Source: Begonia masoniana (lineage: Eukaryota > Streptophyta > Magnoliopsida > Cucurbitales > Begoniaceae). Taken from it: a stretch of 64,000 bases of DNA. Position 1 is the first letter of the stretch, and each line of letters opens with the position of its first letter. The position numbers were made by a program, and so were the translations under genes. Below are positions 11,289-63,881 of the stretch, piece after piece. Location: contig CM039514.1 of assembly GCA_022432975.1 (NCBI GenBank), positions 9,965,519 to 10,029,518 on the forward strand, given 5' to 3'. Below the pieces are notes generated by a model that saw only the letters and a list, made by a program, of their open reading frames with translations, was not told where the DNA came from and did no database searches.

Positions 11289-12911
11289 GAAGTCCTCACC
11301 TGTAAAGTCATCACCTACATCACAAAGTTTTTCCCCAATTTGATACCTTAGCTAGTAGGTATCAAATTTGAGAAAATGAAAATATGCTCATCTAATGACA
11401 CACCCCCAAGACAAATGTTGAAAAGTCACAAAACGTTCCAAAATATTTTCTCATGATATGCTCGTTGTCTAGTTAAAATTTAGACTAGTTCGGACCACAC
11501 CTTTTTTTTCCTAATTGATTTTGCCACATAATTTCCTAAACAAAACTAACATTAAAATTTACAAACAATCGACCAAATGTGAAAAAGCCACAAAACTTTG
11601 CAAAACATCTTATCATGATGTGCTAATTGTGTAGTATTCTTGTCCCCGTCCCACACTTAACCTTACTTTACATTTACATTTTTATCTTTCTTACTTCAAA
11701 TCACGTGCATAAAACAATTTGCGTGACTTTCTTGAAAATGTGATGCATGAACATACATTGTGCATAAACATAACATAATAAAAAGACAAGTCCTCGAACC
11801 ATAATTAAACGATAGATCATCAAGACAAAACATAAAGCAAACATACTCAACCTAAGACGTATTCTACGACCTATCTACCCGTCGACAACCCCGACACGTA
11901 AAAGTCTAGTACTTTTGTAATGTAGGGCCTTAAGGGCTGACACGTACATACTAACTTACCTGAGGTCTGTAGAGTTAGCAAGCCTTGAACGTATTTTCTC
12001 GGCGATTCACGAACATATAACACGTATAATCAAACCATAAACCACGTTACAAAAACGCTAACTAATAAACTAAGTAGAACACCTTCCAAGCTCCATTAAA
12101 AATTCTAAAACAATTTCAACAACTCTTTCGGACAATTCATCGAACACTTTATGTGCACATATTCATTCTCAAATCCTTCTCTCATCTAACGTTTCTTTTT
12201 AACGATTCAACATGAATCGGAAAGCTTATCACGTCTAGATTAACATGGAATCATTAATTTTTAAAAAGCAAGCCATAAACGATAGCAGAAACTACAAATT
12301 CGTGGGTGCCCTATTTAATGCCGATTTCCAGTCGAATTTTTTGTTTTTCCTCGAACGAGCCTAGTTTTTCCATAGTTTATCCATTCAAACCTTTAAATAA
12401 CATTCTAGCATGATTTCGCATAAATCGACGAGTTTTCTAAAACCCTAACCCTAAAAACATCCAACAAAACTAGTGTATAAATAGCCTAAACTCGTTAACT
12501 AACGTACAGGCTTACCTTTAATGAATAAATCGGAAGAAATGGAGGGGGGAGGAGCTTAGTTGGTCGTCTGTGTGGAGAAATCCCAGTTCGTCATTGTCTG
12601 GAAGAGAGAAAGCAGAGAGAAGAAGCAGAAAAAGAAAGAGGGGAAAGAAAGAAGGGGGAGGGGTATTCTGATGCCCACCCATGTAAAGAGAGAGAGAGAG
12701 AGAGCTATTCATTAAAGAAGCGTCGGGTTTTGTTTCGGATTCTCATTTCAAATCTCGTACATTATAACTTCCTCGGTTTCGCTCTATTTTCTTAAATTCA
12801 TAGATTTCTGGCATCCAAATTCTAATAAAATGTTCATTGCATTTATAGCGAATTAATTTCGTCCAGTGAATTTTAGTGACGATTATATGGCCAAAAATGC
12901 CGAGTGTTACA
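11289..12911 (-). mobile_element. Gypsy (Tekay-type) LTR, sense 5' part
   Basis: The plus strand ends CGAGTGTTACA at 12911, i.e. the sense LTR starts TGTAACACTCGGC, and satellite DNA follows. Inside it are, in the sense direction, a GA/CT-rich exon-like leader (12540-12710), the 5' splice-like site at 12515, the micro-exon (11960-12014), the second donor and the GGCCYTTAAGGG hairpin at 11925-11936. It is similar over long stretches to the LTRs at 16426 and 25927. The sense 3' part is cut off at 11288 by another LTR-like sequence. Confidence 0.7.
11925..12515 (-). other. LTR splice cassette A (intron, micro-exon, donor, hairpin)
   Basis: Sense order: donor AAAG|GTAAGCC at 12515, intron-like 12015-12515 (501 nt), micro-exon 11960-12014 (55 nt, starting GTTCGTGAATCGCCGAG), donor CAG|GTAAGTTAG at 11959, then GCCCTTAAGGCCC and CTACATTAC. 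In this copy the acceptor is degenerate (TTATAT in place of TACAG), so it may no longer splice. Confidence 0.6.
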
Positions 12912-15900
12912 ACTAATATTTGGTCTATATTATTCTGAAATTTTAACTACAAACCCGCAAACCATGAAAAGATATTCTTCAAAGTTTCGTGTCTTTTTGA
13001 CTTCGTGCGATTTTTTTTATTTTTTATTTTCGTTTACGTTATTATAGGGGCAAAATGAGTGCATAAAGGAAAACTCATATCCAGTCGAGATTATTCTGAA
13101 ATTTTAATACACAACCTGCATATCATGAGAAAAGATTCTACAAAGTTTAGTGACTTTTTAACTTCGTGCGATTTTTTGTCATTTTTTTTTTGTCTGTTTA
13201 CGTTTTTCTAGAGGCTAAATCGGTCTGAAAAGGAAAAAAAATGTCTGCTCTAAATTACCCTGAAATTTTAACTACACAACTAGCATCTTATGAGAAGATA
13301 TTCATCAAAGTTTCGTGACTTTTTGACTTTGTGCGATTGTTTTTCATTTTTAATTTTGTTTACATTATTATATGGGCAAAATCGGTCTGGTAATAAAAAA
13401 AATGACCGCTACAGATTAGTATCAAATTTTGATTACACAACCAGCAAGTCATTAGAAAATACTCTGCAAAGTTTCTTGACTTGTTGACATCGTGCAATTT
13501 TTTGTCATTTTTAATATCTGTTTACGTTATTATAAGAGTAAAATTGGTCTGCAAAGGAAAAAAAATGTCCAGTCCGGATTGTCTCAAGTTTTAATTACAC
13601 AACCAACATATCATGGAAAAATATTCTGGACAGTTTTGTGACTTTTCGACTTCGTATGATTTTTTGTCATTTTTAATCTCCTACATTATTATAGGGGAAA
13701 AATAGGGCAAAATGTCGAGTTCGGATTGGTTTGAATTTTAACTACATAACAACCATATCATGAGAATATATTCTGCAAAGTTTCATGACTTTTTGACTTC
13801 GTGCAATTTTTTGTCATTTTTAATGTCGGTTTACTTTATTATTGGCGCAAAATCGATCCAGAAAGGAAAAAAAATGTCATCACCGAATTAGTATGAAATT
13901 TTAACTACACAACCAGCATGCTATGAAAAGATATTCTATAATATTTCGTCACTTTTGTACTTCGTGCAATTTTTTGTCATTTTTATTTTCTGTTTACGTT
14001 ATTATAGGGGAAAAGTCAGTTCCAAAATGAAAAAAAGATAGCAGGTCTAGATAAGTCTGAAATTTTAACTACACAACCAGCATATCATAAGAACAGATTC
14101 TGCAAAGTTTCATGACTTTTCAACTTCATGCCATTTTTTCTCATTTTTAATGTCCGTTTACGTTATTATAGAAGCTAAATTGGTACAGAAAGGAAAAAAA
14201 AAAAGTCTGCTCTGAATTACTCTGAATTTTTAAGTACACAATAAGCATATTATGAGAAGATAGAATATTCATCAAAGTTTCTTAACTTTTCGACTTCGTG
14301 CGATTAGTTTTTCTAATCTGGATTATTCTTGAAATTATAACTAAACAATCGGTATATCATGAGAAGATATTCCGTAAAGTTTCGTGACTTTCCGACTTCG
14401 TGCAATATTTTTTCATTTTTATTGTCCATTTACGTTCATAGGGAAAAGTTAGTTTGAAAAGGAAAAAATTATCCGGTCTAAATTACTCTAAAATTTTAAC
14501 TACACAACCAGCATATCATGAGAAGATATTCTGAAAAGTTTCGTGACTTTTTGATTTCGTTCAATTTTTTGTTATTTTTAATGTTGGTATACGTTATTAT
14601 TGGCTCAAAATAAGTCCGAAAAAGAAAAAAATCTTATCTTCGAATTATTTTGAAATTTTAACTACACAACCAGCATATTATAAAAAGATATTCTACAAAG
14701 TTTTGTGTCTTTTTTTGACTTCGTGCAATTTTTTGTCATTTTTTATTTTCGTTTACGTTATTATAGGGGCAGTATCGGTTCATAAAGGAAAAGCAGTATC
14801 CAATCTGGATTATTCTGAAATTTTTACCTACACAACCAGCATATCATGAAAAGTTATTCTTCAAAGTTTCGTGTCTTTTTGACATCGTGCGATTTTTTTT
14901 CATTTTTTTATTTCTGTTTACGTTATTATAGTGGCAAAATCAGTGCATAAAAGAACACTAATATCCGGTCCAGATTATTATGAAATTTTAACTACACAAC
15001 CTGTATATCATGAGAAAACATTCTGCAAAGTTTCGTGACTTTTCAACTTGGTGTGATTTTTTGTCATTTTTTGTTTCTATTTACGTTATTCTAGAGGCTA
15101 AATAGGTACGGAAAGGCAAAAAAAAGTCCGCTCTAAATTAGTATGAAATTTTAACTTCACGATCATTATATTATGAGAAGATATTCATCAAAGTTTCGTG
15201 ATTTTTTGGCTTTATGAGATTTTTTTACATTTTTAATTTTGTTTACGTTTTTTTATGGTAAAAAATCATTCTGGAAAGAAAAAAAATGGCTGCTCCGAAT
15301 TAGTCTCAAATTTTAACTACACAACCAGCTTATCGTGAAAAGATATTCTGTAAAGTTTCTTGACTTTTTGACATCGTGTGATTTTTTATCATTTTTTATG
15401 TCTATTTACGTTATTATAGAGGCAAAATTGGTGCATAAAGAAAAACCAATATCCTGTCCGAATTATTCATAATTTTTAACTACACAACCAGCATATCATG
15501 AGAAAAGATTCTATTAAATTTCGTGACTTTTCAACTTCGTGTAATTTTTTGTCATTTTTAATGGCTGTTTACTTTATTATATAGGCTAAATCAGTCCGGT
15601 AAGGAAAAAAAATTTCCAGTCTGAATTACTCTGAAATTTTAACTACACAACCAGCATATTATGAGAAAATATTCTGGAAAGTTTTGTGACTTTTTGAATT
15701 TGTGCGATTTTTTGTCATTTTTAATGTCCTACATTCTTATAGGGGAAAAAATAGGGCAAAATGTCTAGTTCGGATTAGTCTGAATTTTTACTATATAACC
15801 AGCATATCATTATAATATATTTTGCAAAGTTTCGTGACTTTTTTATTTCGTGCGATTTTTTGTCATTTTTAATGTCAGTTTACGTTATTATTTGCGCAAA

Positions 15901-16420: not shown

Positions 16421-16789
16421 AAATTTGTGACGACCCAAACCCGCAAGGGCCGTCACGGGGCTTGACTTGGCATTTATTTGACTTACATATTTTGGATGTG
16501 AAAATTTTGGACTTTTAAAACTCTAAAAGAAAGCCCAGAGTCGTTTTCAAAACGGTTGAGGGTCGCGCTTAAAACCCAATCGAAATCCCTTGGAAACAAA
16601 TTTAAAACAAATTAAGAAATAGAGGAGGAATAAAAATAGAAATAGCCTCGGTTTTAAAGATAGAAGCAAAAGAAAACACATGGGGCCGATCGTTCGGCTA
16701 ACGCTCATGAAATTTCAGAACACTTAGTCAGCCAAACATCAACCAATTAACATCTGACTTCGACCGAACACCTTTCACTAAATGGTCGA

Positions 16790-17185
16790 CGTCTTCGACC
16801 GAACACAAGACATGAAATCAGATGACATGTAATCGGAAGACTTAATCATCGGAAGACGTAAAGTCTGAAGACATAAAATCAGAAGATATAAAATCGGACG
16901 ATATGAAAATCAGAAGATATAAAAATCTGAAGACATGAAAATAGGAAAACATAAAATCGGACGATATGAAAATCGGAAGACATAAGAACAAGTAGACGTT
17001 ACTTGAATACAGGAAGACATCAAATTGGATGACATGAAATTGGATGACATGAAATCGGATGACATGAAATCGAATGATAGGACTTCTACTAAAATCGGGT
17101 GACTTAACATCGGACGACGTTAAGTCAGAAGACATGTAATCAGAAGACTTGAACTTGAGAGGCATAAAAATCGGAAGACATGAAC
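16790..17185. repeat. Short-period ATCGGAAGAC/ATGAAATCGG repeats in the LTR
   Basis: A stretch built of 8-20 bp variants of GAAATCGGATGACAT and AAATCGGAAGACATG. The homologous block in the partner LTR (26290-26705) has a different arrangement, so it changed after or during insertion. Repetitive minus frames here (such as 16842-17165) are artefacts. Confidence 0.9.
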
Positions 17186-17744
17186 ACCTCAGAAATGCGG
17201 TCCAATTTCCCTTGCCAGAACACTTAGCGAAACTTAGGCAGAATTGGCGATCGTTCGGCTATCTCTCTGGATTTTTAATTCCAGAGTTTTACTTCACATA
17301 TCTCCTCCTACCTAATTTCTTCTCTCACAACTTCATGACCTGAAAACCTTACACAACCCCCCCCCCCCCCCCAAAACCCGATTCAAAACATAATCACAGA
17401 CATGTTAGAAAACATGACAGAAATTGAAGAAGTTTGCCTACATGGGTAGCTCTAAAACTCGAACCCTATCCGTGCACAACCAAAAACAAAGATCCCAAAT
17501 GATTCCAGTATGTTTCAAAAGACAACTATCAAAACAAAGATTTTAAAACATTGACACAAAATCTATACATCACCTAAATCCCAAAAACTGTACAAACTTA
17601 ACGTTCGTCACCCACCGGTCAAAAATGCGCCTGACTGCAGTAACCAACCCCACGAGCTCATCCCGCCAACTGCACCTACTCGTCGCCCTGAGGTTCAAAG
17701 TCCTCATCCGGAGGGTCCGTACCTACATCAAAGAGTTTAACTAT

Positions 17745-17757
17745 GAGCCTACAGCTC
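17745..17757 (-). other. Conserved LTR stem-loop GAGC-TGTAG-GCTC
   Basis: The sense strand reads CTTACTGAGCTGTAGGCTCA: a 4-bp stem, 5-nt loop hairpin right after CTTACT. Equivalent hairpins with other bases occur in the LTRs at 27.3, 24.3, 50.6 and 52.7 kb. Confidence 0.6.
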
Positions 17758-18270
17758 AGTAAGGACATACAATGCAATGATGCATATGCTATGCATGAAC
17801 TTTTGAAATACATGAACATTACTTTACATTTACATTCAAGTGGACAGGAGGTATAAGTGGGGCTTATAGAGGGATTGGCGCATATACGTACATGACATAG
17901 CATGACATAACTGGAATCAGTAGTTCTACCGGGTCCCAGGGAGGGATAAAAGGCATATTGTCCTTGGCGAGGACGGTTTTACATGAGTCCCAAGGAAGGA
18001 AAAAAACATATGCCAGCCCCCGTCTCACACTTAACCGTACATTACATTCACATTTTATCTTTCTTAACTTAAAACCACGTGCATAAAATATTTACATGAC
18101 TTTTAAGAAAACGTGTATGCATGAACATATATAGTGCATAACGTAACATGAATAGGCGACAGGATATCAAAGCAAGACATAAAGCGAAACGCATTTAACT
18201 TAGAACGTAATCTACAACCTAACTAGCAAACAACTCCTACAACCAAAAACCTAGTACCTCCGTGTTGTAG

Positions 18271-18360
18271 GGCCTTAAGGGCCAACCTATGCGTATGAAC
18301 TTACCTAGTGTCCGTAGAGTTTGCTAGCCTTGAACGTGTTGCCTCGGTGAGTCTCGAATC
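18271..18360 (-). other. LTR splice cassette B, intron precisely absent
   Basis: The micro-exon equivalent is 18305-18359 (55 nt, ATTCGAGACTCACCGAGG...ACACTAG), followed by donor GTAAGTTC at 18304 and the hairpin GGCCTTAAGG at 18271-18280. Upstream it joins directly to ...GATTAAG at 18360. In the related LTRs at 12 kb and 49/52 kb an intron-like segment sits at exactly this point, after AAG. Confidence 0.7.
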
Positions 18361-18821
18361 TTAATCTAAGAAAACGGAAGAAACGGTGGAAAGGGAGTTT
18401 GCAATCGTCGCTCGTCGTCTGAAAGAGAGAAGGCAGAAATGAGTGGAAATGGGAGGGTTTCACGTTGAAGAGAAGGAGAAGGGAGTTTTGGCTTCTTCCA
18501 CAAGCTTGGACAAGTGGCACGCATTCATTGGCTCCCTCCCAACCACCTTAATTGTCTTCCAAAATTGCCCCTCCATTGGATTCTAACTAATGGTTTTGCT
18601 TTGGTTACTCTTTAGTTTGGTTTTCTACTAAACATCCCAACAATTCTACTAAAACATTCATTATATTAATATCAACTTAATCCCGTTCAATAATTCGAGG
18701 GATAATTACATGGCCAAAAATGTAGGGTGTTACATCCCACCCACCTTAATAGAATTTTGTCTCCAAAATTTGATTAAACAAATAGTTCCGGATATTGGTC
18801 CCTAACGTCCCGTCGTCTTTT

Positions 18822-21800
18822 TTAGGTGGCTTCCTCCACGTTATGATTGCGCCATAGAACCTTCACCAATGGGATCACCCTGTTGCGCAACACTTTCATT
18901 GAAAAATCTAAAATCTTTACGGACCTTTCTTCATACGTCAACGTCGGCTGGATATCTATGTCCACCGGTTCCATGATCCGAGTAGGAACTCGCACACATT
19001 TTCTCAGCATCGAAATGTGAAAAATGTTGTGAACTTCATTCATGGACGCTAGCAGCTGCAGTCTATAAGTCATGCTTCCTACTTTCTTCAAGATGGGAAA
19101 TGGCCCTACAACTCTTGGACTGAGCTTCCCTTTCTTACCAAACCTCATCACGCCCTTCAAAGGCGACACCTTGAAGAATACTTCATCGCCTCAGCGAACT
19201 CTAAGTCTCTCCTCCTCTGGTCCGCGTAACTTGTCTGTCGACTCTGAGCGATATTGATTTGCTGTTTAATAGTAGCCACCACCTCAGACATCTACCGTAA
19301 TAACTCAGGGCCGACAAGTCTGGCTTCTCCAACTTCATCCCAGCACAAAGAAGACTTGAACTTTCTACCGTAAAGAGCTTTATAGGGAGCCATACCGATC
19401 GTAGCCTAGGAGCTATTGTTATAAGTGAACTCCACTAACGGTAAATACTTGCTCCAAGGAGCATGAAATTCTAACACGCACGACCTTAACATATCCTCCA
19501 ATATTTGAATCGTTCTCTCGGATTGTCCGTCCGTCGGTGGGTGAAATTCCGTGCTGAAATTTGACTTGGTACCCAAAGAGTTTTGCAAGCTCGTCCAAAA
19601 TCTTGACGTAAATCGAGGATCCCGGTCAGAAACGATTGTCACCAGTATTCCATGCAGCTTAATAATCTCCTTAATATACAACTTTCGATATTGATCCATA
19701 GAGAAGGTCGTCTTCACAGTTAGAAAATGGGTCGACTTCGTCAGTCAGTCCCCAATGACCCATATGCTATTATGGCCCCTAGCCGTTCTCGGTAGGCCAA
19801 CAACAAAATCCATAGTGATGTTCTCCCATTTTCATTCGGGGATCGGGAGAGGCTGAAGTGGTCCACCTGGTCGTTGATGTTCAGCCTTCACTTGCTGACA
19901 TACCATACAAGAATCCACATATTTGGTAACCTCATTCTTCATATTTGGCCACTAGAAGTGTAGTTTCAGGTCCCGATATATCTTCGTGCTTCCCGGATGT
20001 ACTGAAAAATAAGACGAGTGGACTTCCGATAAAATATCCTTTCGTAGCTCTTCGTCTCTCGGAACGTACCTCCTATTTTTGAACTTCAAAATGCCATCGC
20101 CCGAATAGCTAAAATCGGAGGAGGCATTGGCCTATTTACTCGCAATATCACCCATCTCCTTCGAATTGATCTTTTGGGCCTCTTTAATTTGGTCCAAGAT
20201 GGTTGGCCATAATATCAGATCTGCCAGCACGGCCGATAACTCAGAAACTACCTCCAAATCGAACCTCTGAATTTCTATCCTCAAAGTCATTGATACGGCC
20301 GACATAGCTTGTTGCATAGTAGCCGGCTTCCTGCTCAACGCATCGGCTACCACGTTAGCTTTCCCCGGGTGGTATTTGATCTTGATATCATAATCCTTCA
20401 CGAATTCTAACCACCGCATCTGCCTCATATTTAATTCCTTCTGAGTAAATATGTACTTCAGGCTTTTATGATCCGAATATACTTCACATGGTTGCCCATA
20501 TAAATAGTGTCTCCATACCTTCAGTGCAAAAACAACCGCCACTAACTCCAGATCGTGAGTAGGGTACTTTTGCTCATAACCCTTTAATTGCCTGGACACG
20601 TATGACACCACTTTTCCCTCCTGCATTAACACGCATCTCAAATCAATCTTTGACGTATCACAATACACACTGAATTTGTCGTCTTCGACCGACAATACCA
20701 ACAAAGGAGCAGTGGTTAATTTCTGTTTGAGCGTCTGAAAACTCTCTTCACAAGCTTCAGACCATTTGTACCTGATATCCTTCCTCGTTAAGTTGGTCCA
20801 TAGGCTTTGCTATCAAAGAAAATCTCTTAATAAATTTCCTGTAATAACTAGCTAGCCCGATAAAACTTCGTACCTCGCTGGCCTTTCTCGACCTCGGCCA
20901 TTCCTTCACAGCCTAAATCTTGGCCGGATCCACAGACACTCCTTCTGCAGACACCACATGGCCTAGAAAATTAATCATGCTCAACCAGAATTCACACTTT
21001 GACAGTTTGGCGTACAATTGGTGTTGTCTCAACGTCGATAGCACAATCGACAAGTGTTCTCCGTGCTATTCTTCATTCTGAGAATAAACCAGAATGTCGT
21101 CAATGAAGACGATCACAAACTTGTCCAGGAAATCCTGGAATATTCTGTTTATCAGGTCCATAAATGCCGCCGGGGAATTGGTGAACCCAAACGACATCAC
21201 TCAGAATTCATAGTGTCCATATCGGGTCCTGAATGCGGTATTTGGAATATCGTCCGCTCTGACCTTCAATTGGTAATAACCGGAGCTTAAATCAATCTTT
21301 GAGAATATTCGAGCCCCTTGCAGCTGGTCAAATAAATCGTCGATCCTCGGCAACGGGTACTTATTCTTGATGGTCAACTTATTCAGCTCCCGGTAATCAA
21401 TACACATACATAAGGACCCATCCTTCTTCTTAACGAATAAGATGGGAGCGCCCCACGGAGAGAAAATAGGGCGTACAAAGCTCTTGTCCACAAGTTCCTT
21501 TAGCTGAGTTTTCAACTCCTTCAGCTCTATCGGTGCCATACTGTACGGATTCTTAGATATCAGTTCGGCACCAGGACATACTTCAATTTCAAACTCAATC
21601 TCATAGTCCGATGGTAATTCTGACAGGTCATCTAAGAAGACCTCTGGAAAGTTTTAAACAACCGGAATGTTTTGGAGTCCCACCTCACATTGCTTTTGAG
21701 TATCCACTACATAGGCTAAAAATCCCGAACATCCTGACCTCATCGACTTTTGAGCTTCTAAGGAGGATACAACAGGCATAGAGTGTTCCATTGGTATAGC

Positions 21801-22140
21801 CTGATAGGAGAACTCTTCCTCGTTTGGGCGCTTAAAAGACACCAGCCTGGACCTGCAATTAATGGTGGCGTGATGTCTAAACAGCCAGTCCATTCCTAGA
21901 ATTACATCGTATCCTTTCATACTGATAATGATAAGATTGGCATACAATTTCTAGTCCCCTACTGACACTATATCACCCTGCACTGCCTGCTCGGAGTGCA
22001 TAAACTCTCTGGATGGTAGCATGACACTGTATGGTTGATTTGACGATACAATACACAAATTCTCCCTAACCACGAAGTCCATCACCACAAACGAGTGTGT
22101 GGCCCCCGTGTCTAACAGAGTATATGCAGGTACATTACAG
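18822..22140 (-). pseudogene. Tekay-like pol: protease, RT, RNase H, integrase, chromodomain (broken)
   Basis: Sense order. Protease motif LLDTGATHSFV (about 22120) leads to GYDVILGMDW (about 21920). RT lies at 21539-20990 with [22 protein letters not shown] and the FIDD active site near 21094-21105. RNase H is at 20704-20132 ([26 protein letters not shown]). Integrase has a CxxC finger (CMVCQQ, about 19895), MDFVVG, and the DGQSERTIQ Glu motif (19717-19406); the VD of the second core motif is followed by a stop. The C-terminus (19169-18822) matches the module before and into the chromodomain (YRL, VHNIFHISMLRK, LTYEE, VKVLWRNHNVEEAT). Multiple stops and shifts split it into at least seven frames, so it is dead. 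Confidence 0.9.
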
Positions 22141-22149
22141 ATCAAAATT

Positions 22150-23185
22150 GTACCTGTGATAGCGATATGCTGTACTTCGTCGTCATCCTTGATCATTGCA
22201 AAAACCCTTGGGATAGCACGATTCGGCCTCCTATCCGGTATTGGGCAATCCTGGACGTGATGGCCCTCCTTGTCGCACCTAAAGTATCGGCCAGTAAATA
22301 GCTTACATTCACCTTGGTGGCTTCTCTGACAATGCGGGCATACAGGAAGCTGAGGATCTCTCATTAGTCTTTTTCCCTTGTCCTGATTGGCAGCTGTTTC
22401 ATTGGGCCTCTTCACGCCCCTGTTCAGTTGCTGCTGTGGGTGCCAACCACGACCTTGCTATTGGTGTTGTTGAGGACCATACCGAATGACCCTTTTTGAT
22501 AAATCCCTCTGTCTCTGGAACTTCGTCTCTAAGGCCTCCAACTGAAAGCTTTGGCTACCACTTTTGTATACGGTGCCTTGTCAAATCTCCCGGTCGTGAT
22601 CTCCCGTAAAAGGTCCATCTTCAGACCCTGGATGAACTGGTGTACCTTGTTTTCGTCAGTGTCCACCAAGTGTGTTGCATTGCGGGATAATGACTCAAAC
22701 TTTTGAACATACTCGGCCACATATCCATATTGCCGTAGTCGAGAGAATTCCATCATCTTCTCCTTCCTTACACTGCGGTCGAAATACTTATCGTAGAAAA
22801 TCCTCTTGAATCGACTCCAATCCATTGCCACTGTTGTTGCCTGGATGGTGTCCCACCAAAATCTTACATTCTTAGTGAGATGAAACGTAGCACATATAAC
22901 CTTCTTACTCTCCTCCACTTCTGCGTAGTTGAACATTCGCTCGATCTACCGGATCCATTCCTCAGCGTGAGTTGGGTCCGTCGATAATCCATCAAACGTA
23001 GGTGGTTGGAGTCGCCGGAATATGTCTCCACTGGTGTCACGTGGAGCATTCGCATGATTGTTGTTCCCATTGTCCTCCCTTGCCGTCATGCGTTCCACCA
23101 TGCGAGATTGTACACCGACCAACTTGGTTAAACGATCAATGGCATTGCTACTATCGTTCGCTCCACCTTGACATCCCCTCACCAT
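22150..23185 (-). pseudogene. Tekay-like gag (broken)
   Basis: The start is probably the ATG at 23185. Residues 1-79 lead into the Retrotrans_gag domain and stop at 22946 (stop in WIR*IERMF). The frame reopens (22936-22529: FWWDTI, YDKYF, RLRQYGYVAEYVQKFESL), then breaks again before the nucleocapsid (22415-22200), which has a first finger CPHCQRSHQGEC and a second finger whose first Cys is replaced by Tyr (YFRCDKEGHHVQDC). Distinct from the copia gag by its gypsy-type capsid domain. Confidence 0.85.
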
Positions 23186-23459
23186 TTTTACGAAAATCCT
23201 ATATGTAATATGTAACGCCCCGAGTTATCTGAACCCGGTTCGTCACACAATGCCCGTACATGACTAAAATTTCTACTATATTTTTTTTAAAAATAAAAGA
23301 AATAAACTTGCAGTGGAAATCATTTGAAATGTTAAGGAATAATCGGTCAAAGAAATAGAAGTTTGAATCGTGAAAACACTTTAAAAGTTGCAGAATTCAA
23401 ACGCATCCGCCGATGAGTAAAGTCAACGGAAGAAACAGAAAACAACCAAAATAGAAGAC

Positions 23460-23900
23460 TCATGCCGATGACGTCAGCCGAATGGAAAACAAAGGACATC
23501 TCTCGGTAGACTGTATCTACCAGTGACTAAACGACAAAATACACTCTACATCCTCCGATGACTAAACGACAAAAGTCCTCCTACATCTACCGATGACGTC
23601 AGCCAGATGACTTCCTTCATCCGATCGACTTGGTTCTACACCCACCGATGACTAAACGACAAAAGTCCTCCTACATCTATCGATGACGTCAGCACGCATC
23701 TGCCGATGGGTTAACAACAAAACCCCTCATCCCCTTCTTCCAATAGGGTAAATTGAATATACCGATCACTAAACGACAAAGCATAATACCCACTCATACC
23801 GATAGGGCAAAATCTACATCATCCGATAGAATAAACCTCATGTACCGATGACTTTACTGAGACATCATCCGATGGCTTTATTGAAGATATCTTCCGATAG
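23460..23900. repeat. CCGATGAC(TAAACGAC) repeats with TGACGTCA palindromes
   Basis: Interleaved variants of CATCTACCGATGACGTCAGC and CCGATGACTAAACGACAAAA. The palindrome TGACGTCA (the CRE/C-box bZIP core) occurs at 23469-23476, 23594-23601 and 23684-23691. The complement of CGATGACTAAACGACAAAA is nearly the word repeated in the copia array at 1-909. Confidence 0.88.
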
Positions 23901-24284
23901 AAATAAGGGCGACATCTTAACTACTTCTCGATATACATACACCACATTAATTACAGGAAGGAATTTACTTACTTCATCAAGACCATTCAGAAACAATTCT
24001 CATTGTATTGTTCAAACCCAGTAAAACCAACATTTAAAACCCAACAGATCACTAGTATCAGAAAAACTCAAAACGTAGTCAAATATTAAAATCTCTACTG
24101 TCATGAAAACTAAGCATACTCTGATTAGATTATTACCAACTAAACCCCCACCACTGCTGACAACAGTTAACCCGCCTCATCAGTTTACCAGACCGAGACA
24201 TGAATGTACTCCTCCAACCACATCTAATCATCTGTGCAATCAGAAAATTCACCTGCAGTATCCTCAACACCTACATCACAAAAC

Positions 24285-24302
24285 TCATCTATTAGCCTAA
24301 TG
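24285..24302 (-). other. Conserved LTR stem-loop TTAGC-ATTAG-GCTAA
   Basis: Sense CTTACTTAGCATTAGGCTAAT: a 5-bp stem with 5-nt loop immediately after CTTACT. Same position and shape, different stem bases, as the hairpin at 17745-17757, implying covariation. Confidence 0.6.
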
Positions 24303-24403
24303 CTAAGTAAGGAAAGCAGTAATGAAATGAAACACTGAAATACAAATTCCTAAACATGCAATTTCTACTTTCTCAACTCAGTTGTTCATGTTTCGTTTCT
24401 GTT

Positions 24404-24622
24404 CAGATCCCCCTGTGAAATTGGGAGCTGAATCAACTCTCCCAAAGTATATACATCCACTGGCTCATTAAGGGGCGGATAAATTCTCTTAACAGTAAAT
24501 CTGATTCACATGTTCAGATCCCCCTGTGAAATTGGAAGCTGGATCAACTCTCCCAAAGTATAAATATCCATTGTCTCATTAAGGGGCGGATTACTTCCCT
24601 TAACAGTAAAACTGATTCACAT
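24404..24622. repeat. Tandem duplication of about 108 bp in the solo LTR
   Basis: Two copies beginning GTTCAGATCCCCCTGTGAAA and ending with CTGATTCACAT. A related two-copy block (GATCCCTGATACAAT...) is present at the same place in the LTR at 48030-48220. Confidence 0.9.
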
Positions 24623-24754
24623 AGCTGTTTCAATATGTTCAATCCTCACTATGCCAACATGCCTTCAAATTCATTTTCGTATACTTTAAAAAAAATATGA
24701 TACATGACATACCGACACATTCCAGCATACAAACCCTAATGTTTTGTGATGTAG

Positions 24755-25053
24755 GCCCGAAGGCACAAGAAAACTTTACTTACCTGGTCTCCTGGAAAAA
24801 CTTGGTTGCAAGCTACTTCGGGTATTACTCAAACCTAAAACCATAGACAGAGCATACATTAAATTTCCTCTAATCTTCATTCTAAACCACTAGAAATCTA
24901 AGGGAAACTGTTTTGGGAACTCTAGTCATTGTGCATTCCCGATTTCAACTTAAACCGAAACCACCACTCGCTTACCGCCTTCTCAAAACCTCATCTATCA
25001 TCCCTCCTACCAACGATAGATACAATGTAACCAGAAATAGAAGCAAAACTCAC
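24755..25053 (-). other. LTR splice cassette D
   Basis: Sense: donor CTTG|GTGAGTTTT at 25053, intron-like 24835-25053 (219 nt) ending GGTTTTAG, micro-exon 24784-24834 (51 nt, GTTTGAGTAATACCCGAAG...GACCAG), donor GTAAGTAAAG at 24783, then GCCTTCGGGC (24755-24764, a C-UUCG-G tetraloop hairpin) and CTACATCAC. Both ends of the intron fit plant consensus. Confidence 0.65.
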
Positions 25054-25323
25054 CAAGTTCGGAGGAAATCGCTGGAGGAAGTCGAAGGGGGTCTCCTATC
25101 GCGCTCTGCTAAGCTGAGGAGCTGAGAATTGAGAGGAAATGAAATAAACAGTGGCGGCTACTTCATTAATATTTTCCTTAAATACGTTATCCACCTTTGA
25201 ATTTCTAATTACCCTTATGCCCTTGTCTAGTCATCCACTAACCCTACATTTAATATTGCCATATAAATTGTGCCATTAGTTTAAAAGGAATAGAGAAACG
25301 GTTTGATAGAACCGGGTATTACA

Positions 25324-48652: not shown

Positions 48653-49751
48653 CGAGTTCGGAGGAAATCGCTGGAGGAAGTCGAAGGGGGGTCTCCTATC
48701 GCGCTCTGCTAAGCTGAGGAGCTGAGAATGGAGGGGAAATGAAATAAACAGTGGCGGCTACTTCATTAATAGTTTCCTTAAATACGTTAACCTTTATTAC
48801 TATCAGATTACCATACTGCCCTCCCTTAGTTGTACGTTAACCTAGTCATTAATCCTCCATAAAAATAATGTCTCACGATTTGATTAAATAATTAGATTGT
48901 GATTAAACCGGGTGCTACACATTATGTGGGATTAATTTGTTACTAATACAATGAACGTTTTATTGGAAACCAAATCGATAGAAATTATATATATATATAT
49001 ATACATATAAATATGTATATTTGGATAATGGGATAAAAACCAAACTAATATATGAGTGAACAAAACCATTAGTTAGAAATGCATGGAGGGGTAATTTGGG
49101 AAGGAATTAAGGTTGGTGGAAGGGAGCCAATGGATGGTTGCCAAATGTCCATAACTTGTTGAGAAACCTACATATTCTCCTCTCTTCTACGTGAACCTTC
49201 ACACTCATCCCTTCCTCTCTGTTTCCTCTCTTCCAGACGAAAATCACCCATCGAATCACCTTCGATCTTCCTTGATTTTTCTTTTGTTTCTGCCTAAGGT
49301 AAGCATCTTCTTATGCTAACGTGTCTGGACAAGTTAAATGATAGTTTTGTTGGAGTTTAGGGTTTGTGATATTTTGGAGAAAACTCGCTGCTATTGCATG
49401 AAAACATGTTGGTTTGTTTTCTAAAACCCTGAATGGAGTTAGGAGCATATCCTACAAGTTATTCTGTTAGCATTTGCAGCTTGTGTAACACCCCTAATAC
49501 TGTACCCGTATTTCCCGTATTATTATTATTATATATATATTTTTTTTTACACTTATTACTTTTTATACTTTAAATAAAACTTTGTGCAGAATCAAAACTG
49601 TAGTTGAAATCAAAACTGAAATCGGAATTAAACGGAACCTTGAACATTTAAAACAACTATAAAACAATTTAATAAAACTTAAAATATTAAAACATTTAAT
49701 AACATTACAGACAGAGGGCAGAATCGGAACTAGCTGCCAAAAAGGAGGGGG

Positions 49752-49960
49752 GCGATCGATCTCTGTAAACTACAGAGATCGATCGCTGCTTGCATAATGG
49801 CAGCAAGCGATCGATCTCTGTAGTTTACAGAGATCGATCGCTGCATGCAAGATCGATCTCTGCTGAAAGCAGATCGATCGCTGCTGCCTACATCAAGGGC
49901 AGCGATCGATCTCTGCTTTTCAGCAGAGATCGATCGCTGCATGCTATGCAGCGATCCCTC
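49752..49960. repeat. Series of perfect GATCGATC hairpins
   Basis: Perfect inverted repeats: 16 bp with 3-nt loop (49752-49786), 17 bp with 3-nt loop (49806-49842), 18 bp with 6-nt loop (49899-49940), plus an imperfect one between. All share the arm AGCGATCGATCTCTG. GATCGATC occurs seven or eight times in 200 bp. Confidence 0.95.
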
Positions 49961-51098
49961 TTTCCTTCGTTCAATTTCCTTCTTTTCCTTCAGTGAATTT
50001 TAACACTTCAACACTTAACCATTTTCCTCAATCCTTCCTGCTTCACAATTACCTCAATTAGCTCTCTGGAATCCTGAATTCCAGAGAGCAAATTTCTGTT
50101 AATTCACGCCAACAATCACCATAATTCACAACCTAAACTCAACCAATTAAAACATAATCTAAACTCAATCGACTCGCGTCGGACTTTACGAAGTCCAACT
50201 GCGTAGATAGCTCTAAAAACGGAGCTATCCGTATCAACCTAAAAATAGTTCATAACACTTAATTTAAACCAAACAGTTCCAGAATTTCTATAACGTTTAA
50301 ATAACTGTTTAAACCAAAACATTTTATAACATTCATCAAAACGTTATCTAACCCCTGTCCAGATCCAAACAACCTAAATATTCTATACAATTATCAGATC
50401 AATACATCCCAAAATAACCCCAGAGTCCATACATATATCCCCACAGGTCGGTTAAGCCTCGACTACGCCAGCACACCACCGCAGCCATCCTCCGTCAACT
50501 GAATCATGCCTCAGGTGGAGGGATCTCATCCTCACCTGTTTCCTCGTAATCACCTACACCATACATATAAGTCGTGAGCTTAAGGCTCAGTAAGTCTACG
50601 TGAATGCTTATGCATGAACATGTTTATACAGTTTTTATAACACCGTCACTCATGCATTTCATTCATTCTTTCTTTCTTTCATTCATTCATTCTCACCATG
50701 ACATTCTTTTGGTTACCGAAGTCTATTCACTCGGCAGATGGTTAGGGCCCGTCAAGCGGTTAGACAGCCCACACCATCTGAAGGGAGGAAAACCCGCTCA
50801 CCACGGAACGCCGGGTCTGAACCTCACCCCGATAACCACATACAGAGGGTTGTTTACATGATACTTTACTTGCCTTTACGTGCATTTCTTTTTCATGAAA
50901 ACTATGCTCAAATTCATTTTCATGACGTTTTTAAAACTATGATGCATGAACAGATATAAACATAACATATCAATCATCATACGTACCATCAAGACACTCA
51001 GGCATAACCTACAAAAGAACTAATCCTAACTACCCAACCAAAGCATTTAAACAAACAATTCTCCAATTTCCTCGAACAACAAAAGATCCTATGGTGTA

Positions 51099-51556
51099 GG
51101 CCAATCGGCCAAACAAGTCGCGGAGACTTACCTGAAGTCCTTAGCAAATCGAGAGCCGTCAGGGAGCTTTGTTCACCTAAGCCAATTTACAACAGTTTTC
51201 GTTAAAATTAGTTTAAACTCCTAAACGTCCAATTTAACAAAACCTTAACTAAAGAATTTTTCTAAAATCTTAACTTAACTAATCGAAGCATTTAAACCAA
51301 CAATTAATGCTCGATAGTCCGTAATCCAAATTAACGAGTTTTGCCCTAAAACCCGAAAATTAACCAATTTATAACATTTTCACAAATTGATTTAACTTCG
51401 TCCCATAACGTCCAATACGTTCAATATATACCTAATCACGGCTAACCTATTAATTACGAGCCCTAATTCGCGTTTTTAACGATAATCTAAACGAAACCCT
51501 AAATGTTATAAACCCTAAAAACAGAAATCTAACTTCCGAAAACTGTAAAGACTTAC
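51099..51556 (-). other. LTR splice cassette F
   Basis: Sense: donor CTAG|GTAAGTCTT at 51556, intron-like 51177-51556 (380 nt) ending GGCTTAG, micro-exon 51132-51176 (45 nt), donor CAG|GTAAGTCTC at 51131, hairpin GGCC-GATT-GGCC at 51099-51110, then CTACACCA. Confidence 0.6.
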
Positions 51557-53329
51557 CTAGAACGTCGACCGGAGGAGAAAACGTGAAGGATCGAAGTCGA
51601 TCGGAGGTCGGAACGGAGGAGAACCGGCGATTGGCGTCGGCGGCCGTGAGGGAGAAGCTCCCTGGATCGCGATCTCCAGAGAAGAAAAGGAGAGAAAGTG
51701 AGGGAGAGAAATGATTTTTGGTAAGTTTTATAATATTAACTTGGTAAATTACTAAAATGCCATTCTTTGATTTTTATATTAGTTTCGTTCTTCGGTTCGT
51801 TAATCGTCTAGCTATTTGGTTTCACCAAATCTCCTTATTTCACCAATAAGTCCAACTTATCATTCGGGATTTATTAAAACTGTCCGTTTGCAATTTGGAC
51901 CTTGTTTACTATTTTTACTAAAACATCCTTTATATTACGAGAAACTTAATTACTCGGAATATAGCGTTATCGTTCTGAAAATTCTCGTAATATTCTTAAA
52001 ATCCATATTAATAATTAGGATCCCAACGACACCTCCTGCTTGTAAAACGGGCTTGATTTGACATATTTACGAAAATGCCATTATATATTAAAATAATAAT
52101 ATCCAGAAAAGCTGGATATTACAGCTTGTTTATTCTCCTTACGTGTATGTACAGGTTCGTGAATTACCGAGACGATCGAGAACATCAACCCTACAGCAAA
52201 CAGGTAAGTTCATATCCGTAGGTTGGCCCTTAAGGCCCTACATCACGAAGATACTAGGTGCTACGTATGTCGGGTGGTTTCGAGTAGAGAAAGTTAGAGA
52301 TAAGTTCTGAGTTATCTGTGTCACACCTTACCCTCTGCTGTAATATTTTTGTTGTCTGCCGTTTTATGTTTAAGCACTGTAAATGCTCATGCATACACGA
52401 TTTTCCGAAAGACATGCAAAAGTTTTATGTGCACGATTTTGAAGTTAAGAAAGATAAAATCTGACTGTAATGTATTGGTTAAGTGCGGGACGAGGATTGG
52501 CCTACTGTTTTGTACAGCTTTGTTTGTTCTGTTCTGTTTCTGTTCTGTAAATCTGTTATATGCCTGTCGTGAACTTGCCAGTTCCCCTATAAGCCCCATT
52601 TTCTGACAGATAAAAAAAATGTTCTGTAATGTCACTGTATTCTGAAAAGTTCATGCATAGTATATGCATCACTGCATTTATATGTTCTTACTGAGTTTCA
52701 GACTCATAGGTGAGCTCTCTGATGTAGGTACTGAAACCATAGATGAGGACTTTGTGCCTCAAGACGATGATTTGATGTAGTTGGCGGATCGAGTTCATGG
52801 GGGTTGGTTGCTGCAGCCAGACATATTTCTGTCCCAAGGTTTAAGTTTCTTTTTTGTAAAGTCCATGTCTGTAAACCCTACTGGAACTCTGTTGTTTCTG
52901 TTTAAAACTCTGTTGGAGTTTTGTGTTTTTATTTTAAAAACTCTGTTGGAAATTTTGTTGCGAATATGTAATGTATAGGTTCTGATGTTCGAGTTTTAAA
53001 TCTCTGTTTGACAGTCGATAGTTGTCTCCTGAAATATTCTGTTGTTGATGTGTTTAAAACCTCTGTATTTGACAGTTGAATTTATGTTCTGAAGTATTCT
53101 GGAATTGTTTGGAATATTTTCTATTTTAGAGTGTGTATGGATTATCTCTGATTTTTGGAGCCATCCATGCAACCTGTTTTCCTTAAATTTATGTCGTGTT
53201 TTCCTGGTATGCCCAAAATCATGTTGTGAATCGTTTTTCTGAAGCGTGAAGGTTTCACACTTTCTGTTTTTCACGATTTCTGTTTCTGTGTAATCCTGTC
53301 AAAAGTTGTCAAATTCTGCCCTTTTAAAC

Positions 53330-53790
53330 TACATCTTCTGATCACGTCCACCGCTGCTTTAAATTCACTTCTACAGCTGCCCGTTCTAAAAATCACGTCC
53401 ACCGCTACTTGTAAAATCATATCCACCGCTGCCCGCTGCCCGTTGTAAACTGCACCCACCGCTGTCTTTACAATTTCATCTTCCGCCTGACGTCATCTGT
53501 TTTGTCTTATTCACGTCAACCGGTGAACAGTGCACTTCTGCCTGCGTACCCCGTTGCCTTTAAAATTTACATCATCCGCCTGACGTCATCTGTTTTGTTT
53601 TATTCACGTCCACCGGTGAACAATGCACTTCTGCCCACCTCCACCGCTGCCACTGTTTATTTTTGTCGTATTCACATCCACCGCTGCTTTTAAAATTCAT
53701 ATCCACTGCTGCCTTTGTTTATTCACATCCACCGCTGCCACTGTACACTTTTGTCTTATTCACATCCACCGTTGTCACTGTTCACATTTG
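53330..53790. repeat. CACGTCCACCGCTGC repeats with TGACGTCA
   Basis: Degenerate 20-45 bp units of CACGTCCACCGCTGC and CATCCGCCTGACGTCATCTG. TGACGTCA occurs at 53488-53495 and 53581-53588, the same palindrome as in the repeat block at 23460-23900. Confidence 0.85.
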
Positions 53791-54215
53791 TTTAAAATCC
53801 ATTTCTTCTACCAGTCTCCTGCCTATGTTTTTCCGCCTTTATTTCCTGTGTATTCTGTTTATTTATTCTCATCGTCCATTTCTGTTCCCTGTTCTTCCCA
53901 GTCTCTTCTGTTATTCATTTCTGTGAGCCGGTTATAAATTAGCTACCAGTTTTTAAATCCAGAGAAAGTTCTCTCTCTCTTTGAGAAGTTTTAAAGGTTC
54001 GATTTATAAAAGTCATCTGTCATCTGTTCTTCGAACTGTAATTGTCATCCAGTTTTATACATATGTCATCCAGTCCCATTTCTAGATAAGGTTTCTTTTC
54101 CCTGTAACATTCTAAAAGTTTCAAAAAAAATATATAGTCTGTGTTTTTCTGTTATGTCTCGGAGTGATGGCTTGCCTCTCGGATTCCGATCGGAATCGGG
54201 TTACGGGCCATTACA

Positions 54216-58061: not shown

Positions 58062-59953
<1,892 letters not shown>

Positions 59954-61655: not shown

Positions 61656-61991
61656 TGTAACGCCCCGGCTCGGTGCGCTACTTTGCTCACCCTTACCACG
61701 TTTAAAACGAAGTTTAAAATAATTTTTGATAAAATTTTGACTCGATTTTTGGATTTTTCGAACCCTAAAAAATAGTTGGAAAACGTGCATAAAATACATA
61801 CCAAACGTGTCGAAAAAGGTCGGGTTAAAACATAATTGAAATAGGAAACGTTTTTAAAAAAATCAAGTTGGCACACCATGGGCGCCGCGCGCGTGCACCG
61901 GTGCGCGCGTCGCCCAGGCAGTGCGCGCTGTTGCTGCGAGCACCTCGCATGCAGCAGCTCGCCGCGCGCAGCACACCCGTGCACGTGAGGT

Positions 61992-62076
61992 GCCGATCGA
62001 TCGGCAAAAGTGTCGATCGATCGGCAACCTCTCGGGTTGTCGCTCAATGAATAGCACAAAATGCCGATCGATCGGC
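61992..62076. repeat. GCCGATCGATCGGC palindromes
   Basis: Perfect 14-bp palindrome at 61992-62005 and 62063-62076, with CGATCGATCG at 62014-62023 between. Equivalent in position to the GATC palindromes of the LTRs at 47.6 and 49.8 kb. Confidence 0.93.
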
Positions 62077-62749
62077 GCTGGGCGCAGTGCGCGCTGTGCC
62101 CAGCCCGGCGCCAGTGCGCCCTCTGCGTGCACCTTCGGCCACTAGCGCGCCTCCCTCACTCTTCTTTCACTTTTTCACCATTTCCTTCAATTCTCACCCA
62201 ACCAAAACAACTAAAACTAACCCAAAACTTTTCTTGACATTTCCCACTTTCCGACACGTGAAAATCCCGAAAACCCGACTCTAAAGCATTAGCGAAAACG
62301 TGAAAATTCATGAAAACAAACAACGCATTGTTAATAAAACTCGAGCAGCATAAAGATTAATGTTTTGAAAACCATAACCCTGAAAACAAATACATACAAC
62401 AATTCCCAAAATAATATTCACAAGGTTTATAAAATCATTATCATTTATACAAACAAAATCCAAACAGAACTACCAAAACCCACACCTCCCAGCAACAATG
62501 GTCGAGACGCCCCAACAACTGTCTGCACTTGCATGCCTCGTGCGTCACTGACTGCGCCCTAATCCTGGCCTCCCTCATGGAGCTCACCTGCAATCCTGTC
62601 GTCACCTACACCATAGAACATAAAACGTAAGCTTAATGTTTAGCAAGTAGAGAATAATGCATGTCAACACACACAATGTACACACAACCCTAACACATGC
62701 AGTTTCTACTCGCTATGTTGTTCTCGTTTCATTTTCGTTTCATTATTCA

Positions 62750-63115
62750 TTCATGGAGCCCCTCGCGAGTGCTAATCTAGCACCCTAACGCAACTGGGCA
62801 GCTCCAATAAAGTCTCTCACAGGTGTCACCCTAACGCGATGGGGCGACTCCGACTCTATTATTCTCGTTTCTTTTTCTTTATCTTTCATAAAGCCTCTCG
62901 TGAGTGCTAACCTAGCACCCTAACGCGACTGGATGGCTCTAATAGAGTCCCTCAGGTGTCACCCTAACGCGACAGGGCAACTCTTATAGAGTCTCTCGCG
63001 AGTGGCACCCTAACTTCCAATTGAGTCCCTCACAAGTGTCACCCTAATGTGATTGGGCAACTCCAATAGAGTCCCTCGCCGGTGCCAACTTAACGCGACT
63101 GGGCGACTTCAATAA
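62750..63115. repeat. Degenerate tandem repeats CACCCTAACGCGACTGGGC
   Basis: Six to seven units of roughly 45-60 bp built from GAGTCCCTCGCGAGTG and CACCCTAACGCGACTGGGCGA, with many substitutions and length changes. Confidence 0.88.
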
Positions 63116-63250
63116 TTATCACAGTGCGTTTTATGCTAAAACTCGTATTTTCGTAATTCAAAACCATGATGTATGTCACCCAATTGCTTAATTCAACACA
63201 AAACAAAATAACCAAACAAACAGACAAATCCTTACCGTTCAATGGTGTAA

Positions 63251-63881
63251 GCCCGAAGGCAAAACACAAACATCCTCTACTTACCTAAATTCCCGCAACA
63301 CACTTACTCACTTCGGTTATACCAAATGCATGACTCGTTAACCTAGCACATAAAAGGGAAAAACACTTAAAAACCATTAAGATAAATCTAAGGAATACAT
63401 CAACTAAATCTTATAACCACTTAACCAATTTTAAAGCACAAATCCCCAAAAACCCGAATTTCTCTCATTATCCATCGTCCAACTTCAATCGGCTATAACT
63501 TACTCTTTTTTTCAACGAATTTACACGTTCCACCCCATTCCGTAAACCTCTACATGTCTACTTTCCATTGAATCAATCAAATTTAGTAACCAAACACCAT
63601 GGCTGATCAGATTACACCAAAACAGAATCGGCCACATTGATCAACAAATCCAGTTTTTCACAACTTCCACCCATTCTCTAATCTAACTACCTAAGCAACC
63701 TAAACTAACCTATCTAAGGGTTAAAACATCAAATTTAACAAGAAAACCAGCAAAAGAATGGGAATTTTCCGACCCCTCACATAGGGTTTCCCAAACCCTA
63801 ATAAAACTCCACAAAAACTCATCAAAATATTGAAAAATCTTCACCTAAATGCATTACTAACAAAACCCATTAAAAACTCAC
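63251..63881 (-). other. LTR splice cassette H
   Basis: Sense: donor TTAAG|GTGAGTTTT at 63881, intron-like 63343-63881 (539 nt) ending TTATGTGCTAG, micro-exon 63285-63342 (58 nt, GTTAACGAGTCATGC...GGAATTTAG), donor GTAAGTAGAG at 63284, the UUCG hairpin GCCTTCGGGC at 63251-63260, then TTACACCA. Confidence 0.6.

What the first reader, a model, noticed from the sequence alone, without database searches (positions are those of the whole stretch)
11925..63881. Conserved intron / micro-exon / splice-donor / hairpin cassette inside long gypsy LTRs
Eight LTR copies (near 12.0, 18.3, 24.8, 27.9, 48.4, 51.3, 49.3/52.2 and 63.5 kb) share one sense-strand layout although much of their other sequence cannot be aligned. 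Six have an intron-like interval (GTRAG...AG, about 211-540 nt; a seventh, cassette A, has lost its AG) followed by a 45-58 nt micro-exon, often starting GTT(C/T)G(A/T)G and containing CCGA. All eight then have a second donor, GTAAGT in seven. Seven have a short GC hairpin 10-25 nt later and CTACAYCAC-like text. Such order across diverged families suggests selection for a spliced LTR leader RNA. I do not know of a description of this module.
Basis: partly seen in the sequence, partly recalled or inferred. Interest (0 to 1): 0.9.

Follow-up and report, generated by a model that had tools for sequence, protein, structure and literature searches.

The report
Base-paired introns inside plant retrotransposon LTRs
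The long terminal repeats of these plant jumping genes carry what look like two introns in the leader of their RNA, and the second can be held closed by a long-range RNA stem that covers its own 3' splice site, which may let the element choose between RNA to translate and RNA to copy.

Summary
Eight LTR copies share donor 2; seven have the hairpin. Intron 1 is present in six (A without its AG). B and D lack it: exon 1 is joined exactly to the micro-exon, as in a reverse-transcribed spliced RNA; other copies in the genome show the same join. Donor 2 has its own acceptor in the LTR, 513-679 nt on, in the six copies where it can be read, so the hairpin lies inside intron 2. CTACAYCAC is the reverse complement of that acceptor (TGRTGTAG|G), and the two covary: of 40 loci fetched by acceptor text, 28 had a recognised partner, and all 28 pair at the diagnostic column, in four pair types. 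The acceptor text occurs 8,897 times in the 795-Mb assembly, its reverse never. Descent alone does not explain this. Best model (inferred): a splicing clasp in the leader of chromovirus-like LTR retrotransposons that keeps part of the RNA unspliced for replication. Proof that intron 2 is spliced, RNA data and a second species are missing. Ten full-text searches listed no description.

The parts
25927..28291 (-). LTR D (5' LTR of element B/D); intron 1 absent; donor 2 at 27862, acceptor 2 AG at 27288 (intron 2, 575 nt), hairpin 1 deleted
16426..18734 (-). LTR B (3' LTR of the same element); intron 1 absent; donor 2 at 18304, acceptor 2 at 17723 (intron 2, 582 nt)
18735..23224 (-). broken gag-pol of the B/D element (gag, protease, RT, RNase H, Tf2-1-like SH3; chromodomain-like text read by eye)
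23211..25323 (-). solo LTR C (TSD TATTA): intron 1 25053-24835, micro-exon 24834-24784, donor 2 24783, acceptor 2 24271
24741..24755 (-). 5' strand of the long-range stem in C (CCTACATCACAAAAC), pairs with GTTTTGTGATGTAGG at the acceptor
24270..24284 (-). 3' strand of the long-range stem in C, containing the acceptor AG and the first exon-3 base
24755..24764 (-). hairpin 1 of C (GCC-TTCG-GGC), inside intron 2
48004..48919 (-). LTR E: intron 1 48652-48434, micro-exon 48433-48383, donor 2 48382 (GTAAAT); acceptor 2 lost at the N gap 47904-48003
49484..52123 (-). solo LTR F (TSD GCTTG) nested in intron 1 of G: intron 1 51556-51177, micro-exon 51176-51132, donor 2 51131, acceptor 2 50554
48920..54215 (+). 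LTR G, its start cut at LTR E and interrupted by F: donor 1 49299, micro-exon 52155-52203, donor 2 52204, hairpin 1 52225-52237, acceptor 2 52727
61656..64000 (-). LTR H (start outside window): intron 1 63881-63343, micro-exon 63342-63285, donor 2 63284, acceptor 2 62606
11641..12911 (-). LTR A, truncated by satellite-like DNA: donor 1 12515, micro-exon 12014-11960 (no AG before it), donor 2 11959
11287..11329 (-). acceptor-2/exon-3-like fragment beyond the satellite-like DNA (A')

Best explanation
The LTRs of a group of plant Ty3 elements (at least one, B/D, a Tekay/Del-like chromovirus by eye) carry a three-exon leader: exon 1 (pyrimidine-rich in most copies), intron 1, a 45-58 nt micro-exon, intron 2, exon 3. 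Intron 2 can be closed by a stem between a site just 3' of hairpin 1 and the 3' splice site itself (AG|G paired): 15 bp without a break in C, shorter or interrupted in others. A second hairpin lies between a possible branch site and the acceptor. Supported from sequence: homology, covarying pairing, exact intron-1 loss. Inferred: intron 2 is spliced too, and the clasp sets how often. The clasped, intron-2-containing RNA would be the replication template and the spliced RNA the mRNA or a short LTR RNA. Intron 1 can be lost by reverse transcription of a spliced RNA; that intron 2 is kept in those copies fits a need for it in the template, but this rests on few unselected loci.
For: Acceptor 2 at the same place in 6 of 6 readable window copies. 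Best duplex between the intron-2 ends is the same stem in 6 of 6. 7 pairs with changes on both sides, 0/500 shuffles as high (the same six). Cognate ends pair better than swapped ends: 4/720 permutations; 0-1 of 2000 in each of 20 representative sets, at 80% and at 70% grouping. 40 loci fetched by acceptor text: 28 with a recognised partner, col 40:91 paired 28/28 as CG15 GU6 UA4 AU3; 0/5000 permutations reach the total pairing. Exact intron-1 loss: window B/D; L115, L100, L101 with no unaligned tail, L151 with 6 nt; 5 of 6 further loci. Introns GC-poorer than exons with one exception. ATG 4 in 1,420 nt of exons 1-2 v 170 in 5,309 nt of introns.
Against: No RNA evidence. Intron-2 splicing is unproven: the one exon2|exon3 junction searched had 0 matches, which fits both 'never reverse-transcribed when spliced' and 'never spliced', and covers one subfamily only. 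The stem is in the whole-intron minimum-energy fold of C, D and F but not of B, G and H. Column 43:88 is unpaired in 13 of 28. Against shuffled 3' ends A (48), B (163), D (26) and G (68 of 1000) are weak. The measure 'further pair types' is not above shuffles (175/500). 22 of 60 donor-fetched and 12 of 40 acceptor-fetched loci lacked the partner by the set patterns. Hairpin 2 is only moderately above shuffles (5 bp or more in 35/43 v 1048/2150). H intron 2 is GC-richer than its exon 2 (0.44 v 0.41). The first 50 nt of exon 3 hold 10 ATG in 300 nt, as dense as introns. L115, L131, L151, L100 and L101 were chosen through donor 2 or acceptor 2, so their keeping intron 2 is no test.
Confidence: 0.57

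Rival explanations
1. Ordinary leader introns: both introns simply raise expression or remove upstream ATGs, and the stem is a zipper that shortens the intron and helps splicing, with no role in keeping RNA unspliced.
For: Few ATG in exons 1-2 (but exon 3 has as many as introns). Yeast RPS17B shows that pairing between the two intron ends promotes splicing (PMC2536676, abstract read).
Against: Here the pairing covers the 3' splice site itself rather than only bringing ends together. Of loci chosen only by an exon1|exon2 junction, 5 of 5 with an exact join keep donor 2; small numbers.
Confidence: 0.3
2. Intron 2 is not spliced: hairpins and stem are a genomic-RNA structure for packaging, dimerisation or 3'-end formation, and the splice-like ends are coincidental parts of it.
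For: 0 matches to an exon2|exon3 junction v 1,165 to the same exon end with the donor.
Against: CAG|GTAAGT donor, YTTAC-like branch site by eye, TGTAG|G acceptor, lower GC between them in 5 of 6; strong conservation at the exact acceptor; intron 1 nearby shows exact loss.
Confidence: 0.2
3. Simple common descent without present function.
For: The LTRs are homologous. The acceptor module is not the best match in 9 of 15 pairs, and no splice module is among the seven matches printed for G-H, H-B or H-D.
Against: It is the best match, in register, in C-G, C-H, F-G, F-H, C-B and C-D; compensatory changes need selection on pairing.
Confidence: 0.06
4. Intron 2 began as a transposon with terminal inverted repeats (an introner or MITE) and the stem is the old repeat.
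For: The stem is a 15-nt perfect inverted repeat in C.
Against: The two arms covary rather than decay, donor and hairpin 1 lie outside the repeat, and I saw no target duplication by eye (no search made). Could still be the origin.
Confidence: 0.05
5. Exon 3 codes: spliced RNA makes a small protein with an acidic tail.
For: One frame of exon 3 stops at codon 14 in 46 of 83 loci and at 14-17 in 65 of 83; third codon positions vary more (0.342 v 0.23 in 29 loci; 0.516 v 0.36 in 23 loci).
Against: No start codon seen in the frame, no codon signal in exon 2, frame broken in B, D and H, no protein relatives for the F version.
Confidence: 0.15

Closest known systems
Ogre/Tat introns (PMC6317226 passages; PMC12786077 passages)
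   Same: plant Ty3 element with an intron removed from only part of the transcripts
   Different: [quoted passage not shown] here the introns lie inside the LTR, upstream of gag
BARE1 and EVADE short-gag splicing (PMC3735527 passages; PMC12786077 passages)
   Same: plant LTR element that splices part of its RNA; BARE has separate RNA pools for translation and replication
   Different: Ty1/copia; intron in the coding region, no LTR intron or long-range stem in the passages I saw
Diaspora 5' leader (PMC1142308 passages)
   Same: splice donors predicted in the LTR of a long-leader Ty3 element, acceptors flanking the start codon
   Different: prediction only; [quoted passage not shown]
Yeast RPS17B zipper stem (PMC2536676 abstract)
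   Same: pairing between sites near the two ends of one intron
   Different: yeast gene; 3' arm upstream of the branch site, not on the acceptor AG
Retroviral leaders such as HIV-1 and HTLV-1 (recalled, not from a call)
   Same: splice donor followed by packaging structure; in HTLV-1 a donor within the LTR R region
   Different: those donors splice out of the LTR to distant acceptors; here donor and acceptor are both in the LTR
Sirevirus conserved non-coding motifs (PMC2829016 passages)
   Same: conserved palindromic motifs in LTRs of a diverse plant lineage
   Different: Ty1/copia, motifs upstream of the TATA box; no LTR introns in the passages I saw

Membership tests
Tekay/Del-like chromovirus (element B/D) | Ty3 order gag, protease, RT, RNase H, integrase | tested here: inconclusive
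   Pfam gag, RVP_2, RVT_1, RNase H, SH3_Tf2-1 in this order on the minus strand; no integrase core hit, the piece 19409-19744 gave none
Tekay/Del-like chromovirus (element B/D) | chromodomain | tested here: inconclusive
   chromodomain-like text read by eye before the 3' LTR; not scored by a profile; the lineage name is recalled
Tekay/Del-like chromovirus (LTRs A, C, E, F, G, H) | pol of the lineage | not tested
   no internal region was assigned to these LTRs in the window
Spliceosomal intron (intron 1) | GT..AG ends, lower GC than exons, exact loss in retro-copies | tested here: met
   A lacks the AG; in H exon 1 and intron 1 hardly differ in GC (0.36 v 0.35)
Spliceosomal intron (intron 2) | GT..AG ends and lower GC than exons 2 and 3 | tested here: met
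   ends in 6 of 6; GC lower than the exons in B, C, D, F, G; in H higher than exon 2 and lower than exon 3
Spliceosomal intron (intron 2) | removal from RNA | tested here: inconclusive
   one exon2|exon3 junction pattern, 0 matches; no RNA data
Ogre-type intron | intron between protease and reverse transcriptase | tested here: not met
   the introns described lie in the LTR
Intron with end-to-end (zipper) pairing | covarying complementarity between intron ends | tested here: met

The most novel reading that the evidence does not exclude
The clasp is a replication switch: only RNA whose intron 2 stays clasped and unspliced can be packaged and reverse transcribed, because intron 2 carries the packaging signal, while opened and spliced RNA is translated. 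A large set of LTR copies in this genome would then carry a conserved regulated intron of a kind that plant LTR retrotransposons are thought to lack.
Probability: 0.26. Interest if true: 0.9.

Novelty: new variant of a known kind. Interest (0 to 1): 0.78.

Why it matters
[quoted passage not shown] Here the acceptor text of a structured leader intron occurs 8,897 times in one genome, and its ends covary in the sample tested. How one RNA serves both translation and replication is an old open question for these elements; the stem gives two short complementary sites that can be changed and restored to test it. The motif may also serve as a marker for long plant Ty3 LTRs, for which one study could not build LTR HMMs (PMC3601003 abstract).

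Tried and rejected
Viral contigs: 43 matches to the donor pattern; 1 of 43 (L042) has acceptor-like text within 1,500 nt, which I take as chance. Acceptor pattern: 0 in viral contigs (with a final G) and 0 in genome contigs. No relatives of the RNase H piece in viral contigs. Protein relatives of the spliced F frame: none. The coding reading of exon 2 is not supported. The transposon-repeat reading was kept as a possible origin only. Searches for the intron-1-containing count (ATAGGTTCGTGMATCAC), the exon-3 count (TGTAGGTACKGAMCC) and AGGTAAGTN{5,30}GGCCTACA did not complete, so no ratio of intron-less to intron-bearing copies is given. Odds: on re-reading my calls I lowered the best explanation from 0.60 to 0.57 and the novel case from 0.30 to 0.26, because intron-2 retention in most intron-1-less loci follows from how they were chosen and the stem is absent from three of six minimum-energy folds; common descent went from 0.05 to 0.06.
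Full report
What is in the window. The window lies in a 795-Mb, 308-contig assembly at C13:9965519-10029518. It is plant-like by its retroelements and by protein relatives in named plants (7,895 of 7,999 scored candidates at E <= 1e-20, 120 listed). Element B/D runs on the minus strand: LTR D 28291-25927, then a tRNA-iMet-like primer site (recalled), a Cassandra-like piece (recalled name), solo LTR C (TSD TATTA), broken gag-pol, LTR B 18734-16426; B and D are 88% alike. F is a solo LTR at 49484-52123 (TSD GCTTG) nested in intron 1 of LTR G.

The observation. Donor 2 is in 8 of 8 copies, hairpin 1 in 7 of 8, intron 1 with both ends in 5 (C 219, E 219, F 380, H 539 nt; G 211 nt without F; one search printed 214 because three F bases were left in) plus A (501 nt) without AG. 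B and D have none. All 8 [CT]AG|GTAAGT in the window, both strands, are in these LTRs.

Acceptor 2. A second conserved module lies 513-679 nt after donor 2: YTTAC-like text, hairpin 2, then TGNTGTAG|GT, in B, C, D, F, G and H; E is lost in the assembly gap and A is broken by satellite-like DNA. HMMs trained without a lineage recover it: C 8e-12, F 2e-9, H 6.5e-8, G/B/D 2e-10 to 4.5e-10; the donor 2 module is recovered less well, and G not at all when A/B/D/G are withheld. In 15 pairwise LTR comparisons the best match is this module, in register, in six: C-G (8e-10), C-H (4e-11), F-H (7e-9), F-G (1.5e-4), C-B (5e-6) and C-D (8e-7). Donor 2 is second in C-H (1.5e-5). The module ranks lower in C-F, F-B and F-D, is missing from A's LTR, and no splice module is among the seven matches printed for G-H, H-B or H-D. 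So these are homologous LTRs whose splice modules are, in many pairs, the best kept parts.

The clasp. It is the best duplex between the intron ends in 6 of 6, but the whole-intron minimum-energy fold holds it only in C, D and F. On the six window copies 92.1% of cells pair, 7 pairs change on both sides and no shuffle of 500 is as high; the count of further pair types is not above shuffles (175/500); slid controls pair in 26-50%. Swapped ends pair worse (-15.6 v -19.7 kcal/mol; 4 of 720 permutations reach the observed sum for A, C, D, F, G, H, where A uses the acceptor beyond the satellite-like DNA). Against shuffled 3' ends: A 48, B 163, C 0, D 26, F 1, G 68, H 0 of 1000, so only C, F and H are convincing alone.

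Genome-wide. Donor pattern: 342 matches v 54 reversed. From the places listed I chose 60, mostly for distinct text; 38 have an acceptor at +454 to +704, 22 do not, several of these being, in my reading, chance or other repeats. L110 was dropped from the tests as a chance match; of the eight loci that came, six are among the 60 and two are further copies left out. With 37 loci and 6 window introns, cognate ends beat permuted ends in 20 of 20 representative sets (0 or 1 of 2000) both at 80% grouping (15 clusters, L110's left out) and at 70% (10 clusters, L110's left out). Acceptor pattern: 8,897 matches v 0 reversed. I fetched 40 of the places listed, all on contig C1, for distinct text, with no condition on the 5' arm. 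28 had a donor followed by TACA text; column 40:91, fixed by neither pattern, pairs in 28 of 28 as CG 15, GU 6, UA 4, AU 3. In all, 352 of 420 cells pair v a permuted mean of 333.3 and maximum of 350 in 5000; the TACA and TGTAGG cells pair by construction and are the same in the permutations. Of the 12 others, six have the partner with an altered donor or TACA text or at another distance (L121, L123, L124, L128, L130, L149; my reading). The acceptor motif has no match in viral and prokaryote contigs.

Was it spliced? B/D exon 1 joins the micro-exon with no gap at the junction seen in A and G. Among 65 loci read by eye five looked intron-1-less. Aligned to intron-bearing relatives, L115, L100 and L101 reach the junction with no unaligned tail and meet a GT there, L151 leaves 6 nt and L131 is unclear. 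These five were chosen through donor 2 or acceptor 2, so they say nothing on keeping intron 2. A spliced-type exon1|exon2 junction has 33 exact matches v 0 reversed; of 6 fetched, 5 have exon 1 joined exactly and one (L154) does not; all 5 keep donor 2, and an acceptor at 498-517 nt was recognised in 3; in L155 and L156 the acceptor pattern was not found. The one exon2|exon3 junction tested has 0 matches while its exon-2 end with the donor has 1,165 v 0. That pattern covers one subfamily and the matching exon-3 count was not obtained, so the asymmetry between the introns is suggestive, not measured.

Leader character. GC is lower in introns than in adjoining exons, except that H intron 2 (0.44) exceeds its exon 2 (0.41), and H exon 1 and intron 1 hardly differ (0.36 v 0.35). 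Exons 1-2 hold 4 ATG in 1,420 nt, introns 170 in 5,309; 5 of 2000 base shuffles of six copies are as low. The first 50 nt of exon 3 hold 10 ATG in 300 nt. Exon-1 starts were my estimates.

Exon 3. One frame ends at codon 14 in 46 of 83 loci and at 14-17 in 65 of 83, with acidic residues, and third positions vary more. Exon 2 has no such signal, I saw no start codon in the frame and it is broken in B, D and H. I leave this open; related copies are not independent.

How it most likely works. Supported from sequence: an LTR leader with two introns, a covarying clasp over acceptor 2, exact intron-1 loss. Inferred: the clasp limits splicing of intron 2, giving spliced RNA for translation (or a short LTR RNA) and unspliced RNA as template. 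The BARE study argues that replicating elements must avoid copying spliced RNA (PMC3735527 passages); intron-1 loss shows this sometimes fails.

Known work. Ogre, BARE1 and EVADE introns lie between or within coding regions (passages). Diaspora (passages) had predicted donors in its LTR and the statement that introns upstream of gag were unreported. Sunflower Tyran and Varan give spliced isoforms carrying gag parts (PMC7730604 passages). In the CRM survey (PMC3059260) a find for 'intron' and 'splic' gave 0. Ten full-text searches (one search was on intron pairing in general; others returned nothing) listed nothing describing this module by title or start of abstract; most subscription papers are not in that library.

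Noticed in passing
25447-25913 and 36741-37767: Cassandra-like TRIM copies (recalled name): 5S rRNA family hits in three places; at 25.4-25.9 kb a one-LTR copy sits between two primer-site texts just after LTR D, as if joined through the shared primer site.
   Followed up: partly
12922-16401 and 28294-31840: About 162-bp satellite arrays beside which LTRs A, B and D lie.
   Followed up: no
1-909 and 9617-9748: 46-bp tandem repeat, 99% matches in the first array and 91% in the second.
   Followed up: no
exon 3: 24270-24224, 27287-27241, 17722-17676, 50553-50504, 62605-62559 (minus), 52728-52780 (plus): Short acidic reading frame with a conserved stop position and more variable third codon positions, no start codon seen.
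   Followed up: partly
about 26988-27051 (minus), 50185-50245 (minus), 53045-53171 (plus): A further conserved block some 240-440 nt after the acceptor, with a possible hairpin in F read by eye, seen in the F-B, F-D and F-G comparisons.
   Followed up: no
L069, L094, L098, L104: Another repeat family with GTAAGT, a different hairpin-like text and CTACATCAC, without a recognised acceptor.
   Followed up: no
L117, L145 exon 3: Exon-3 text with extra in-frame letters next to the acceptor.
   Followed up: no
58041-59950: Reading frames resembling a quinone oxidoreductase-like host gene (recalled name).
   Followed up: no
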